Part shown: positions 14,414 through 47,193 of the stretch, piece after piece
Numbering within the stretch: the first letter of the stretch is position 1
How the letters are laid out: each line of letters begins with the position of its first letter
Translations under genes and position numbers: made by a program
Source of the DNA: Pseudomonadota bacterium
GTDB taxonomy: Bacteria > Pseudomonadota > Gammaproteobacteria > Burkholderiales > JAJZQI01
Reading direction: 5' to 3'
Assembly: GCA_021851875.1 (NCBI GenBank)
Contig: JAJZQI010000006.1
Coordinates: forward strand, 62,001 to 126,000
DNA: 64,000 nucleotides
The notes under the pieces: model-generated
Told to the model about the DNA's origin: nothing
Databases searched by the model: none
What the model saw: only the letters and a program-made list of their open reading frames with translations

Positions 14414-15268
14414 TTACTCTGGCTTGATATGACGCAACAGATCATCCAGCATGTCGAGGTTGCTGTATTCGATGATCAGCTTGCCGGCGCCTTTTTTTCC
14501 ATGTTTCAGGCTGACATGCGTGCCAAGCCGTTCCGACAGCGATTCCGCCAGACGCATCACATCACGATCCGGCTCGGCGGCAGCGGATTTTTTCGGCGGG
14601 TTGAGCAGATGCTGCACCAGTTTTTCCACCTGGCGCACGGACAGGTCTTTCAGCACGATCTGCTGGGCTGCTTCGACCTGCTGACCGCCGGCGAGCGACA
14701 GGAGGGCGCGGGCGTGGCCCATGTCCAGCTTGCCTTCCAGCATCATGCTCTGCACCACCGGCGCCAGGCCGAGCAGGCGCAGCAGGTTGCTGACCGCGCT
14801 GCGCGAGCGGCCGACGGCATGCGCCGCCTGCTCGTGGGTAAGGCCGAACTCCTCGATCAGACGCTTGATGCCCTGGGCTTCCTCCAGCGGATTGAGGTCT
14901 TCGCGCTGGATGTTTTCGATCAGCGCAAAAGCCAGCGCCGTCTCATCCGGAATATCGCGGATCGCCACCGGCACTTCAGCCAGACCGGCCAGTTGGGCCG
15001 CGCGCCAGCGCCGCTCGCCGGCGATGATCTCGTAATCGCCCGGCGCCAGCTGACGCACCACCACCGGCTGGATGATGCCCTGGGCCTTGATCGACTCGGC
15101 CAGCTGGGTGAGCGAGTGCTCATCCATGCGCGTGCGCGGCTGATATTTGCCGGGACGCAAGCTGGTGACGGGCAGGCATTGGCTGGTGACCGGCTCAGCC
15201 GCTTCTTTTTCGTCCGAGCCCATCAACAGCGCGTCCAGACCGCGCCCCAAGCCTTTCATTTTTGCCAT
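14414..15268 (-). CDS. parB: Chromosome-partitioning protein ParB
   Basis: 284 residues. It binds parS and spreads as a CTP-dependent clamp. The N-terminal region starts [20 protein letters not shown], followed by [14 protein letters not shown] and the CTP-binding [14 protein letters not shown] helix-turn-helix lies near [20 protein letters not shown], and a C-terminal dimerisation domain ([15 protein letters not shown]) closes it. It is 22 bases downstream of parA; four candidate parS sites are in this window. Confidence 0.97.
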
Positions 15269-15290: not shown

Positions 15291-16070
15291 TCAGGCTTGT
15301 GCCGCCTGTTTTTCCTGATTGCGCAGCAGTTCGCCCGCCAGCTGCAGGTAGGCCTGTGCGCCCTTGGAGGTTTTGTCGAATTCCAGCGCTGGCACGCCGT
15401 AACTGGGCGCTTCCGCCAGACGGATGTTGCGCGGCACGACGGTGCGGTAGACCTTGTCGCCGAAATGCTGCTGCAGTTGATTGGCCACCTGCAGCGCCAG
15501 CGTGCTGCGCGGATCGTACATGGTGCGCAGCAGGCCTTCGATTTCCAGTTTCGGATTAAGATGCTGACGCAGGCGCTTGACCGTCTGCACCAGATCGCTC
15601 AGCCCTTCCAGCGCATAGTATTCGCATTGCATCGGAATCATGACCGCATCGGCTGCCACCAGCCCGTTCAGAGTCAGCAGATTGAGCGCCGGCGGGCAAT
15701 CGATGAGGATGAAGTCGTAACGCTCGGCCACTTTGGCCAGCGCGCGCTTGAGCCGGACCTCGCGGTTTTCCTCGTCCACCAGCTCCACCTCGGCACCCGC
15801 CAGTTCGCGATTGGCCGGCAGGATGTCGTGTTTGGACGGCGTTTGCAGGATGACATCGCCCACCTCGGCCAGCCCCAGCAGCAGGTGATAGACGGTCTGC
15901 TTGCAGGCGCGCTTGTCGATGCCGCTGCCCATAGTGGCGTTGCCCTGCGGATCCAGGTCGACCAGCAGCACCTTGCGTTTCATGGCCGCCAAGCTGGCCG
16001 CCAGATTGACGGCGGTGGTGGTTTTGCCGACGCCGCCCTTTTGATTGGTGATCGCGAGTATTTTGCCCAT
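15291..16070 (-). CDS. parA: Chromosome-partitioning ATPase ParA (Soj)
   Basis: 259 residues. It has the deviant Walker A NQKGGVGKTTTAVNLAASL, LLVDLDPQGNAT and FILIDCPPALNLLT. It works with ParB to move the origin region by a nucleoid-bound ATPase gradient. It is the third gene of mnmG-rsmG-parA-parB; its start is three bases from the rsmG stop. Confidence 0.97.
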   Translation of the reverse strand: MGKILAITNQKGGVGKTTTAVNLAASLAAMKRKVLLVDLDPQGNATMGSGIDKRACKQTVYHLLLGLAEVGDVILQTPSKHDILPANRELAGAEVELVDEENREVRLKRALAKVAERYDFILIDCPPALNLLTLNGLVAADAVMIPMQCEYYALEGLSDLVQTVKRLRQHLNPKLEIEGLLRTMYDPRSTLALQVANQLQQHFGDKVYRTVVPRNIRLAEAPSYGVPALEFDKTSKGAQAYLQLAGELLRNQEKQAAQA

Positions 16071-16073
16071 GGT

Positions 16074-16700
16074 TTATGTACTTGTCGGTTCCAGTTTGAG
16101 CACGTGCCGTTCTCCCTCCAGCATCGGCACCGCGAGTTTTATGCTTTCCGCCAGCCTGATGCCGGGCAGCCTGGCCAGTTCGTCCGCCGGGTACTGCCCC
16201 TTCAGCGCCAGCCAGACGCCGCCGGGGGCGAGCAGGTGACGCGTCAATCTGATGAACAGCTCCAGTTCGGCAAAGGCGCGCGATAGGATGCAGTCCATTT
16301 TTTCTTCCGGCTGCCAGTCTTCCACGCGCTTGGCCACCACCTCGACATTGTCCAGTTGCAGCTGCATGCGCGCCTGCTGCATGAACGCAGTGCGCTTGCT
16401 GTTGCTTTCCACCAGATAGTATTGCCGCTGTGGGTCAACCATGGCCAGCACCATGCCGGGCAAACCGGCGCCGGTGCCGATATCGGCCACCCGTTTTCCG
16501 CTAACATAAGGCAATACCGCCAGACTGTCGAGCAGATGATATATAACCATATTATCGCGCTCGCGTACCGCCGTCAGATTATAGACGCGGTTCCATTTTT
16601 CCAGCAGATCAAGATAAGTGAGCAATCGCTCACCGGCTTCCGGCGGCAAATCGAGCCCCAGAGATGCCACGCCTTCGGCCAGAATGGCTGCAGCCGTCAT
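16074..16700 (-). CDS. rsmG: 16S rRNA (guanine527-N7)-methyltransferase
   Basis: 208 residues. It methylates G527 of 16S rRNA with SAM. It shows [20 protein letters not shown], the SAM-binding [16 protein letters not shown] and the later [10 protein letters not shown]. It overlaps the mnmG stop by four bases, the usual mnmG-rsmG arrangement. Confidence 0.96.
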
Positions 16701-18610: not shown

Positions 18611-18673
18611 TTGCCGGCCAGTTTAAGTGTGTAAAAAGGCAGGAAATTATATATTGAGGAATGACACTGTGGC

Positions 18674-18710
18674 AAAAAATCGGCCGCCTGTTTCACGTGA
18701 AACAGGCGGC
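18674..18710 (-). terminator. pldA terminator hairpin with a parS site in its stem
   Basis: Bases 18683-18710 form a 28-base perfect palindrome that starts GCCGCC and ends GGCGGC. Its core, 18689-18704, is TGTTTCACGTGAAACA, a perfect parS sequence. On the minus strand it begins directly after the pldA stop and is followed three bases later by six T (complement of 18674-18679). It therefore has the form of a Rho-independent terminator for the rpmH-to-pldA transcript as well as being a ParB-binding site. Confidence 0.85.
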
Positions 18711-19733
18711 TCAGAGCCAGCCTCCCAGCTGGATGCCGAAACCGAGCGAACGGCTGTGATAGTTGTAGTCGATCAGGCTTTCGCCAAAGCCGTCGTAGTA
18801 CTGGATGTAGCCGCGCAGGTTTTTGTAGAACGGGTAGCTGTAATCCAGCTGCAGCGCGCTTCTGCCGGTATCCGGCGCCGTGCGCAGCATCATGCTGGAA
18901 ACGTGGTTGCCGGCATGATGCACGGCGGTGAACTCGATGCCGCCGATATACTGTTCAATGTCCGGGTTATCGTCTGACGCCGGTTTTTCCGGAATCCGCC
19001 TGGACAGGCGCAGGCCCAGCGCCAGGTTGTCACGCTCCACCACCGCTGCCGCATAGACGCGGTTCCAGCTGCGCGACAGCAGGCCCGACTGGCCGTTGGA
19101 CTGGTGTTCCAGCCCGACATTGAAAACCCGTGCGGTCCAGCCGTCCTGCTCGATGTCCGTACGCCAGCGCAGCCAGATTTCCGGCTCGTGGTTGGTTTCG
19201 CGGAAAGGCGCCGACAGGTGGTGGTTGAACACCTGCCAGAACGAGCGGTTGGTGTAGCCGGCCATCAGGTCCATATTGTCGCCGAACAGATTGAGCGCCA
19301 GCGGGAACTTCAGGCTCAGCTGAAACTTGGCTTCGGCATTGCGAAAGCTGATGTTGTCCGCCGGGTAGGCCTGGTTGTACGGCGCATCGTTCGGCTTGTT
19401 GAACTGGTAGGCGAAAATGAAATAATTGGGCCGATGCGTCGTGATGGCGTAGGGATTGTCGAAGGCCTGCATTTCCCTGCTCAGGCGATTCTCAACGGTA
19501 GCCGACTCTTGTTCTGCGGTGTTTACCGCTGCGTGCTCGGCGTTTGTTTGCATTGCGGGCGTCGACGTCACCCGTAATGAACCCGACCGGCATGCTGCGC
19601 GCAACTGCGCGACGGTGGTGTTGTCGGCCGCGTTGCGGATTTTTTCCAGCAAGCATTGTTCTTGCCGCTCTGCCGCTGCGAGCTGTGGCAGCAGGAGCAG
19701 GGCGGCAGCCAGAGCAGGCTTATTCTTCCACAT
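18711..19733 (-). CDS. pldA: Outer-membrane phospholipase A (PldA/OMPLA)
   Basis: About 340 residues from the ATG at 19733, which gives a clean signal peptide (MWKNKPALAAALLLLPQLAAA); an ATG 12 bases earlier is also possible. The catalytic block GLEHQSNGQSGLLSRSWNR contains the His-x-Ser pair and the downstream Asn typical of OMPLA. The C-terminal half is a 12-strand beta-barrel ending in GFGIQLGGWL. It hydrolyses phospholipids in the outer leaflet to keep outer-membrane asymmetry. Its start overlaps the preceding YchJ-like gene. Confidence 0.9.
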   Translation of the reverse strand: MWKNKPALAAALLLLPQLAAAERQEQCLLEKIRNAADNTTVAQLRAACRSGSLRVTSTPAMQTNAEHAAVNTAEQESATVENRLSREMQAFDNPYAITTHRPNYFIFAYQFNKPNDAPYNQAYPADNISFRNAEAKFQLSLKFPLALNLFGDNMDLMAGYTNRSFWQVFNHHLSAPFRETNHEPEIWLRWRTDIEQDGWTARVFNVGLEHQSNGQSGLLSRSWNRVYAAAVVERDNLALGLRLSRRIPEKPASDDNPDIEQYIGGIEFTAVHHAGNHVSSMMLRTAPDTGRSALQLDYSYPFYKNLRGYIQYYDGFGESLIDYNYHSRSLGFGIQLGGWL

Positions 19734-20121
19734 CACCGTTAACATAAACCCATCGGCCTTCATCACGGACAAAACGGCTGGTTTCCTGCATACGATACGC
19801 CTTGCCGTTGATTTTGTAACGCGCGATAAACGCCACCACCGCGTGGTCCGGATCCAACTGTTCATGCCGGACCACTTTCAGGCCCAGCCAGTTCGGACGC
19901 GGCTCAACGGCCAAATCCAGACTGGCGGGCCGGGTCTGGTGAAACCAGGTGTTGCGCAAATACGCTTCCAGCCCCAGCACATAAGCTGTGTAACGCGAGC
20001 GCATCAGCTGCTCGGCGGTTTCTGCCACAGCGCCCCGGTGCAACAAGCCGCAACAGGATGCGTAGGGCTTGCCGCTGCCGCACGGGCAGGCCGCCGGCTC
20101 AGTAGTGTGGCGGTTTTTCAT
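19720..20121 (-). CDS. YchJ-like (UPF0225) SEC-C protein
   Basis: 133 residues. An N-terminal SEC-C zinc motif (CPCGSGKPYASCC, about 12-24) is followed by an NTF2-like YchJ domain (RSRYTAYVLG, then ARYKINGKAYRMQETSRFVRDEGRW). Function in the family is not established. It overlaps slyX upstream and pldA downstream, indicating one transcript. Confidence 0.88.
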   Translation of the reverse strand: MKNRHTTEPAACPCGSGKPYASCCGLLHRGAVAETAEQLMRSRYTAYVLGLEAYLRNTWFHQTRPASLDLAVEPRPNWLGLKVVRHEQLDPDHAVVAFIARYKINGKAYRMQETSRFVRDEGRWVYVNGDVEE

Positions 20122-23311: not shown

Positions 23312-23521
23312 TCAGGGAACGGGATCATGCCCGCCCGGATGCCATGGGTGACAGCGCAGTATGCGTCGCGTGCCCAGCCAAATACCCTTGATGCTGCCAT
23401 GTTTGGCAACCGCTTCGCACATGTATTGCGAACAGCTGGGCGTATAACGGCAACTCTGACCCAGCCAGGGGCTGATCAGGTACTGGTAGGCCCGCACGAG
23501 AGCAATGATCAGTCTGCGCAT
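23312..23521 (-). CDS. yidD: Membrane protein insertion efficiency factor YidD
   Basis: 69 residues. It is a small Cys-containing protein with [15 protein letters not shown] and [17 protein letters not shown], the UPF0161 signature. It overlaps rnpA by 13 bases and precedes yidC, as in most bacteria. Confidence 0.95.
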
Positions 23522-23868
23522 TTTACCTGCAATTTATGAATAATTGATGCCAATTCCCGCAAAACCTCCTGGCGCTCGGCACGACCAAAGCGCTTACGCA
23601 CCAGAATGACGACGTCGAGGGAGGTGTAATTTGCGCGAGTTAGACGAAAAAATTCCCGCAACGTTCGTTTCATGTAGTTACGGCTGACCGCCCGCTGCGC
23701 GACTTTTTTTCCAACCACCAGACCGACGCGCGGGCGGCCCAGTCCGTTGGCTTTGCCGTAGAGCTGAAAATGCGGACTGAAAAGGGAACAGCGCAAACGA
23801 AAAACGGATGAATACTCATCCGTTTTTGTGATTCGATACTGCTTGCCGAAGCCGAAGTCGGCTTTCAA
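23509..23868 (-). CDS. rnpA: Ribonuclease P protein component
   Basis: 119 residues, TTG start at 23868. The basic motif [22 protein letters not shown] is the RNase P protein signature that binds P RNA. The gene begins three bases after the rpmH stop. Confidence 0.94.
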
Positions 23869-27032: not shown

Positions 27033-27048
27033 TGTTTCACGTGGAACA
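27033..27048 (+). promoter_or_regulatory. parS site overlapping the gyrB ribosome site
   Basis: TGTTTCACGTGGAACA is the reverse complement of the classical Bacillus subtilis parS, TGTTCCACGTGAAACA. It ends six bases before the gyrB ATG, and its GTGGA is the only Shine-Dalgarno-like sequence for gyrB. Confidence 0.85.
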
Positions 27049-39792: not shown

Positions 39793-39808
39793 TGTTTCAC
39801 GTGAAACA
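39793..39808. promoter_or_regulatory. parS site upstream of the LPS cluster
   Basis: TGTTTCACGTGAAACA, a perfect palindromic parS, in the 103-base gap between cobQ and the heptosyltransferase gene. About 14 kb from the probable oriC. Confidence 0.9.
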
Positions 39809-46060: not shown

Positions 46061-47193
46061 ATACCTGCTACCAGATCAATCTGATGCAGGGCTATGGCGG
46101 CGGGGAGGTCTACACACGCTTCTTTACGCGCGCCTTGCATGAGCTGGGCTGGCGGCCTGTCGTATACGTCCACCCGGCGGGCCCGTTGCGGCGGCGGCTG
46201 GAGGAGGACGGCGTTGAAACCATTCCGGCGAGGAGCTTCGCAGACGTTGTTCCGCTGCTGCCGCAGGCGTCGTCGATCATCATCTCCCACACCCCGGCGC
46301 TGGGGTCTTTAACCGACTCCCTGGCTAAGCATTTTTGGGCAAGCTTTGCGCACATGCCTTTAACCGGACGCAATCCGGAACCGTTTCGAAAGCCTGATCG
46401 GGTGCTGGGGGTGTCTCGCTACGTTATTCAGACCTTGCGTGCAGCCGGCATTGAGCGGGTTTGGCCGGAGCCGATGTACGGCATCGCCGATCTTGTTCCA
46501 CGTGGAACATCCGGCGGAAAAATCATACGCCATTCCGAATACGACTGGGATACCCGCAAATTCCGCGACCGTCTGCTCGGCTGGCTTGAGCCGCTGGCCG
46601 GCATGATGAGATCTCCTGAAGAATACATCGCACGGCCGGGGCTGACCCTGGGCATCGTTTCACGTCTTACTCCCATCAAACAGTTTCCCGCGATGTTTCA
46701 CCGCCTGGCGCCGGTCCTGCTGCGGCACGAGGCGGTCAATCTGGAGGTGTTCGGCAATGGCGGTTACCGCTCCGTGACCGATCTGAAAAAGGCGCTGGCG
46801 CCGCTGGGACGCCGTGTCCGCTTTTGGGGGCATCAAAGCGATGTGGCCGCCATCTACCGGCAGCTTGACTGCGTTATGTCCGGGCTGCCGGAGAAGGAGG
46901 CGCTGGGACTGAACTTGATCGAGGCGCAGGCGGCCGGCACAGCCGTTGTCGCGGTCAATGCGCCGCCGTTTACCGAAACGGTCAAGCACGGCGTAACCGG
47001 CTGGCTGTATACCGACCCGCGAGAGGACCGCGGAGAGGATTTTGAACGCTTGATCCGCCGCTTGCTGGATGGCGCGCAATTGGACCACGGCAGGGCGGAA
47101 GAGCATTTACAGCAGTTTTCACAGACGGCATTTCGGCAACGGGTACACGATCTGATGCAGGCATTGGCGAGCGGCCGGCAGAAAAATGCATGA
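46057..47193 (+). CDS. GT4-type glycosyltransferase
   Basis: 378 residues, GTG start at 46057 sharing GTGA with the preceding stop. The N-terminus NTCYQINLMQGYGGGEVYT is a GT4 acceptor-domain start, and the C-terminal half has LGIVSRLTPIKQFPAMFHRL and GLPEKEALGLNLIEAQAAG with the EX7E-like donor site. A perfect parS lies inside it (46494-46509), encoding residues of LVPRGTSG. Confidence 0.82.
   Translation: MNTCYQINLMQGYGGGEVYTRFFTRALHELGWRPVVYVHPAGPLRRRLEEDGVETIPARSFADVVPLLPQASSIIISHTPALGSLTDSLAKHFWASFAHMPLTGRNPEPFRKPDRVLGVSRYVIQTLRAAGIERVWPEPMYGIADLVPRGTSGGKIIRHSEYDWDTRKFRDRLLGWLEPLAGMMRSPEEYIARPGLTLGIVSRLTPIKQFPAMFHRLAPVLLRHEAVNLEVFGNGGYRSVTDLKKALAPLGRRVRFWGHQSDVAAIYRQLDCVMSGLPEKEALGLNLIEAQAAGTAVVAVNAPPFTETVKHGVTGWLYTDPREDRGEDFERLIRRLLDGAQLDHGRAEEHLQQFSQTAFRQRVHDLMQALASGRQKNA
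46494..46509. promoter_or_regulatory. parS site inside a glycosyltransferase gene
   Basis: TGTTCCACGTGGAACA, a perfect palindrome and a known parS variant, within coding sequence about 21 kb from the probable oriC. Confidence 0.85.

What the first reader, a model, noticed from the sequence alone, without database searches (positions are those of the whole stretch)
18674..18710. parS built into a transcription terminator
A perfect 16-base parS is the core of a 28-base palindrome that follows the pldA stop directly and is followed by six T on the transcribed strand. ParB binding could affect termination, and hairpin formation in RNA is given for free by the palindrome. The site lies between two gene groups, the second one encoding ParA and ParB.
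Basis: partly seen in the sequence, partly recalled or inferred. Interest (0 to 1): 0.6.

Follow-up and report, generated by a model that had tools for sequence, protein, structure and literature searches.

The report
Centromere site doubling as transcription terminator
A site where the chromosome-segregation protein ParB should bind is also the hairpin of a transcription stop signal between two groups of genes, and the same fusion turns up again in many unrelated bacteria, usually just ahead of the genes for ParA and ParB.

Summary
On the minus strand, 18710-18683 is a perfect 28-base palindrome (GCCGCC-parS-GGCGGC). It starts at the base after the pldA TGA and is followed by CGA-TTTTTT. It folds at -23.7 kcal/mol against -10.0 for shuffles, and is the only one of the window's four parS sites of this form.

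The fusion is not private to this genome. The sister species keeps it, with a compensatory change in the flanking stem. In unselected Burkholderiaceae sites upstream of mnmG, stem extension and T-run occur together (9 of 10 sites with a T-run, 1 of 29 without), T-run in the mnmG direction. A scan of all prokaryote genomes found parS hairpins with T-runs in Burkholderiales, Clostridia, Negativicutes, Bacilli, Streptomyces and others. In 42 of 64 loci mnmG or parA begins within 320 bases downstream. The six flanking pairs covary while the parS core never changes.

I read it as a composite boundary element: intrinsic terminator, ParB loading site, and adjacent conserved promoter for mnmG-rsmG-parA-parB. 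Termination and ParB binding are strong inferences; ParB repression of the promoter is plausible; ParB-controlled termination is untested. No held paper describes parS terminators; the closest precedent is uptake-sequence (DUS) terminators in Neisseria.

The parts
18683..18710 (-). 28-base perfect palindrome: GCCGCC-parS-GGCGGC, the hairpin of the terminator
18689..18704 (.). parS core TGTTTCACGTGAAACA (ParB nucleation site, by consensus)
   Evidence: ParB with ParB_N, HTH_ParB and ParB_C domains in the same genome
18674..18679 (-). T6 tract of the terminator (RNA U-tract), three bases after the stem
   Evidence: conserved in sister species
18711..18713 (-). pldA stop codon TGA, immediately before the hairpin
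18670..18675 (-). -35 hexamer TTGCCA, overlapping the last two T of the T-tract
   Evidence: conserved in sister
18646..18651 (-). -10 hexamer TATAAT of the predicted promoter for mnmG-rsmG-parA-parB
   Evidence: conserved in sister
18711..19865 (-). pldA (outer-membrane phospholipase A1), the upstream gene that would be terminated; true start probably inside this ORF, since it overlaps the YchJ-like ORF
   Evidence: PF02253
16697..18610 (-). mnmG/gidA, first gene of the downstream operon
16074..16700 (-). rsmG/gidB
15291..16070 (-). parA
14414..15268 (-). parB
27033..27048 (.). second parS (TGTTTCACGTGGAACA), dnaN-gyrB gap, no terminator form
39793..39808 (.). third parS, intergenic, no terminator form
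46494..46509 (.). fourth parS (TGTTCCACGTGGAACA), no terminator form

Best explanation
The element is a composite boundary. Read as RNA from pldA, the extended parS palindrome forms a 12-pair hairpin followed by U6 and ends the pldA transcript as an ordinary intrinsic terminator. Read as duplex DNA, its 16-base core is a ParB loading site, one of four around oriC. Directly behind it lies the promoter of mnmG-rsmG-parA-parB, so ParB loaded at parS and sliding outward would sit on or next to that promoter and probably dampen its own operon. The two functions share sequence because parS already supplies six stem pairs and a four-base loop; evolution needs only a few flanking pairs and a T-run. 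Steps shown: sequence, fold, conservation, covariation and direction. Steps inferred: termination, ParB occupancy, promoter use and repression.
For: Hairpin, U6 and position right after a stop codon. The sister species has the same layout, with a C-G to T-A double change in the stem and the T-run, -35 and -10 kept. Of 93 unselected parS sites in the order, 19 have at least 4 extra stem pairs against 0.7 expected, with 0 of 2000 shuffles reaching that. In Burkholderiaceae, not selected for T-runs, 10 of 39 sites upstream of mnmG have a T-run of 5 or more in the mnmG sense; only one site (G530, a bidirectional hairpin) also has one in antisense. Nine of those 10 have an extended stem against 1 of 29 others. 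In the all-genome scan for parS followed by T6, 69 of 90 sites have at least 4 flanking pairs against 6.9 in shuffles. Flanking pairs covary: score 0.320 against 0.107 shuffled and at most 0.110 slid in Burkholderiales; 0.370 against 0.107 shuffled and at most 0.139 slid elsewhere. Same-strand genes usually end shortly before the hairpin, and convergent gene pairs carry bidirectional versions. mnmG or parA starts within 320 bases downstream in 42 of 64 loci. ParB repression from intergenic parS sites is measured in P. aeruginosa (PMC5521831).
Against: No RNA 3' ends or ParB ChIP data were available. Twelve or so of the 19 extended palindromes in the order census lack a clear T-run, so the extension is not always a canonical terminator. 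In the window only one of four parS sites is of this form. The promoter is a consensus match only.
Confidence: 0.78

Rival explanations
1. ParB-dependent attenuation: ParB on parS acts as a roadblock that changes termination, so that readthrough from pldA into mnmG-rsmG-parA-parB reports how much ParB is on parS. The terminator would be a feedback switch for the partition operon.
For: The hairpin and the ParB site are the same bases. In 42 of 64 loci the composite lies just upstream of mnmG or parA on the same strand, in unrelated phyla.
Against: Polymerase must already have passed through parS before the hairpin forms, so ParB must have been displaced by then. Composite sites also lie between convergent genes with no par operon next to them (Leuconostoc L141 and L149). 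Nothing in the sequence requires ParB for termination: the stem and T-run are strong alone.
Confidence: 0.12
2. The extended palindrome serves ParB or DNA structure (tighter binding, cruciform), and the T-run is incidental.
For: Several extended palindromes upstream of mnmG have no T-run (G003, G131, G127, G063, G007).
Against: T-runs go with the extension and lie on the sense side. The ParB contact map in Burkholderia cenocepacia concentrates specificity inside the 16 bases, and the outermost pair is the most tolerant (PMC5450999). Flanking pair identities are arbitrary as long as they pair.
Confidence: 0.08
3. parS next to a terminator is a chance or positional by-product: parS and terminators both sit between operons near oriC.
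For: Both elements favour intergenic sites (general knowledge).
Against: They do not merely neighbour each other; parS is the centre of the stem. Shuffling flanks among sites gives 0.7 extended stems against 19 observed.
Confidence: 0.02

Closest known systems
DNA uptake sequence (DUS) terminators of Neisseria and their Pasteurellaceae counterparts
   Same: A short sequence kept for another reason (DNA uptake) also builds the stem of intrinsic terminators (stated in PMC2397512, citing Ambur 2007 and Kingsford 2007).
   Different: There two DUS copies in inverted repeat make the stem, and uptake needs only one; here one palindromic protein-binding site is itself the inner stem and loop, and the partner is ParB and the centromere, not uptake.
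Chromosomal parS next to regulated promoters (P. aeruginosa parS3/parS4; parS overlapping a gidB promoter in M. bovis BCG)
   Same: parS upstream of a promoter near oriC; ParB represses PA0011 and PA0013 from it (PMC5521831), and a parS over a gidB -10 was proposed to regulate it (PMC2346475).
   Different: Neither is described as a terminator; here the same bases also close the upstream transcript.
Burkholderia cenocepacia chromosome 1 parS
   Same: Same 16-base consensus and same order, with 2 sites (PMC7022226, PMC5450999).
   Different: The papers that could be read do not describe parS as a terminator; the terminator form is shown here for Paraburkholderia, Caballeronia and Trinickia.
Ordinary intrinsic (Rho-independent) terminators
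   Same: G+C-containing hairpin plus U-tract right after a stop codon.
   Different: Six of the twelve stem pairs and the loop are frozen by a second function.

Membership tests
Chromosomal parS (ParB centromere site) | 16-base consensus TGTTNCACGTGNAACA | tested here: met
   0 mismatches; 4 sites per genome, 0 in reversed control
Chromosomal parS (ParB centromere site) | Clusters near oriC with a cognate chromosomal parAB in the genome | tested here: met
   all four in the dnaA/parAB window; ParB_N, HTH_ParB and ParB_C domains
Chromosomal parS (ParB centromere site) | Bound by ParB in the cell | not testable with these tools
   needs ChIP-seq or EMSA
Intrinsic transcription terminator | Stable hairpin followed within a few bases by a U-tract | tested here: met
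   12 pairs, -23.7 kcal/mol, U6 after three bases
Intrinsic transcription terminator | Lies after a gene end, in the direction of transcription | tested here: met
   starts at the base after the pldA stop, T-run on the same strand; same in relatives
Intrinsic transcription terminator | Stem kept by compensatory change | tested here: met
Intrinsic transcription terminator | RNA 3' end at the U-tract | not testable with these tools
   no RNA data held
DUS-type terminator | Two copies of an uptake sequence in inverted repeat form the stem | tested here: not met
   the stem is one parS palindrome plus flanking pairs whose identity varies freely between lineages
ParB-autoregulated par operon | parS at the operon's promoter | tested here: inconclusive
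   parS lies about 13 bases upstream of a predicted and conserved -35; promoter not mapped

The most novel reading that the evidence does not exclude
parS terminators are a widespread class in which the partition complex and transcription termination are functionally coupled: ParB loading at parS changes readthrough into the parA-parB operon (or polymerase passing through the hairpin resets ParB loading), giving a feedback loop between transcription and centromere assembly.
Probability: 0.13. Interest if true: 0.8.

Novelty: new variant of a known kind. Interest (0 to 1): 0.56.

Why it matters
parS is treated as a pure DNA site. That the same bases repeatedly became the hairpin of a terminator, in lineages from Leuconostoc to Paraburkholderia and mostly at the upstream edge of the par operon, means that changing or deleting such a parS also removes a terminator. 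Phenotypes of parS mutants and of parS insertions could then partly be readthrough effects. It also gives a clean natural system for asking what RNA polymerase does to ParB loading, since here polymerase must cross the loading site each time and then stop just beyond it.

Tried and rejected
A T-run count alone over the phylum was not a usable measure: several hits look like lysine codons near a gene start read antisense (G405, G340, G312, G410, G296), and G020a is the end of mnmE read antisense. Paper searches on parS with terminators, Rho-independent or stem-loop gave no description of parS terminators; the hits opened were about plasmids, cloning vectors or unrelated statements. Two key Burkholderia parS papers are not held. 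Chance was rejected.

Full report
WHAT IS THERE. On the minus strand the pldA stop codon (18713-18711) is followed at once by GCCGCC-TGTTTCACGTGAAACA-GGCGGC (18710-18683), then CGA, then six T (18679-18674). The core is an exact parS. The genome has four parS sites (TGTTNCACGTGNAACA), all in this window (18689, 27033, 39793, 46494), and no match to the reversed control pattern. The other three are not terminator-like. The hairpin is the best terminator hit of the region and one of the two longest perfect stems in the window. It folds at -23.7 kcal/mol against -9.96 +/- 2.39 for shuffles. Genes were checked with Pfam: pldA, mnmG, rsmG, parA, parB, mnmE.

THE PROMOTER. The last two T of the tract are the first two bases of TTGCCA, which with TATAAT 18 bases on makes an 11-of-12 sigma-70 match, the only one of that quality in 64 kb (0.25 expected in shuffles). 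The sister species keeps both hexamers, with a 17-base spacer (reading). parS therefore ends about 13 bases above the -35 of the predicted promoter of mnmG-rsmG-parA-parB. In other families parS sits even closer to a promoter-like element: in G062 and G144 a conserved TTATGAT lies about 15 bases beyond parS, and in G076, G430, G513 and G594 the conserved TGCTATGAT lies about 10 bases beyond it (read by eye, not tested).

CONSERVATION AND COVARIATION. The sister species has AAGCGCTTG...CAAGCGGCTGATTTTTTGCCA after the pldA stop. The innermost flanking pair is C-G in one species and T-A in the other, while parS, the T-run and the -35 are identical. In 30 distinct Burkholderiales sites the six parS pairs never change, whereas all six flanking pairs show changes on both sides; 98.9% of cells pair (88.8% in shuffles) and the covariation score is 0.320 (0.107 in shuffles, at most 0.110 when slid). 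In 48 sites outside that group the score is 0.370 (0.107 in shuffles, at most 0.139 slid). These counts involve related sequences, so the numbers are not probabilities, but the slid controls keep relatedness.

UNSELECTED TESTS. In 150 genomes of the order, 93 parS sites were read with flanks without regard to terminators. At least 4 flanking pairs occur in 19, against 0.7 when flanks are exchanged among sites (0 of 2000). In Burkholderiaceae (80 genomes), 39 sites upstream of mnmG were oriented by the mnmG strand. Ten have a T-run of 5 or more in the sense direction, and one of these (G530) has it on both sides. No sense A-run of 5 occurs. Nine of those ten have an extended stem against 1 of the other 29. 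The tenth (G585) uses parS as the right arm of a different hairpin. Here the upstream gene is an ABC transporter ATPase gene (livF-like by its sequence), not pldA, so the arrangement does not depend on pldA. These sites come from few genera, so they are not 39 independent events.

BREADTH. They come from Paraburkholderia, Caballeronia, Trinickia, Undibacterium, Methylotenera, Sulfuritalea, Clostridia (Flavonifractor, Pseudoflavonifractor, Oscillospiraceae, Lachnospiraceae), Negativicutes (Selenomonas, Phascolarctobacterium, Acidaminococcus), Bacilli (Leuconostoc, Domibacillus), Streptomyces and Desulfobacteraceae. Ten loci carry T-runs on both strands; some of these lie between convergent genes whose ends are 9-22 bases away (L109, L141, L149). 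In 42 of 64 loci with a strong stem, mnmG or parA starts within 320 bases downstream on the same strand. In several Clostridia and Negativicutes loci the site lies between a ParB-family gene (Noc-like position, inferred) and parA. The stems differ between lineages (42 distinct stem arms in 56 loci with at least 5 pairs), which points to repeated origin; this was not tested on a tree.

MECHANISM. Shown: the sequence forms, the conservation, the direction. Inferred from established knowledge of intrinsic terminators: the hairpin plus U-tract ends the upstream transcript. The parS core alone folds at -3.9 kcal/mol, the full stem at -22.3, so the terminator depends on the flanking pairs, which explains why they are kept. 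Inferred from the consensus and from the presence of ParB: ParB loads here. Inferred from measurements elsewhere: ParB on intergenic parS3 and parS4 of P. aeruginosa represses the adjacent promoters (PMC5521831, PMC7022226), and a parS over a gidB promoter was proposed to regulate it (PMC2346475), so autoregulation of mnmG-rsmG-parA-parB is likely but unproved. A role of ParB in termination itself is possible but unsupported; polymerase has to cross parS before the hairpin can form.

UNEXPLAINED. About a dozen of the 19 extended palindromes in the order census have no clear T-run (for example G003, G131, G127, G063, G007). They may be terminators with poor tracts, attenuators, or serve ParB. 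This is the main weakness of a pure terminator reading for the class, though not for the window's site.

NOVELTY. Full-text searches of the held library found no account of parS as a terminator, and the two general reviews read do not use the word. Subscription papers, including two on Burkholderia parS, could not be read. The principle, a sequence kept for another purpose reused as a terminator stem, is known for DUS in Neisseria (PMC2397512). I therefore call it a new variant of a known kind.

Noticed in passing
window 23800-23827 (-): A 28-base perfect palindrome AAAAACGGATGAGTATTCATCCGTTTTT lies inside the rnpA reading frame (23509-23868), about 40 bases after its start, encoding KTDEYSSVF; it is terminator-like on both strands and could attenuate rnpA.
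   Followed up: no
Burkholderiaceae loci, e.g. L039:485-500: A second parS lies inside the mnmG coding sequence (V-S-R-E-T codons) in Burkholderiaceae and family f49; the window's mnmG has I-A-R-E-T there and no parS.
   Followed up: partly
L041:2024, L051:2024 and G076/G430/G513/G594 sites: In other families parS upstream of mnmG sits against a conserved TATGAT-type -10, so that parS would cover the -35: a promoter-type instead of a terminator-type arrangement.
   Followed up: partly
G585:C70:84029-84090: A variant terminator in which parS is the right arm of the hairpin: GAGGGTGTTTCA-TGTTTCACG-TGAAACACCCTC-TTTTTT.
   Followed up: no
G003, G131, G127, G063, G007, G136a sites: Extended parS palindromes of 5-8 extra pairs without a T-run, nearly all just upstream of mnmG; function unclear.
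   Followed up: no
window 18711-20121 (-): pldA and a YchJ-like gene lie between mnmE and mnmG here, whereas mnmE directly precedes parS and mnmG in many Burkholderiales (L041, L045, L049, L051).
   Followed up: partly
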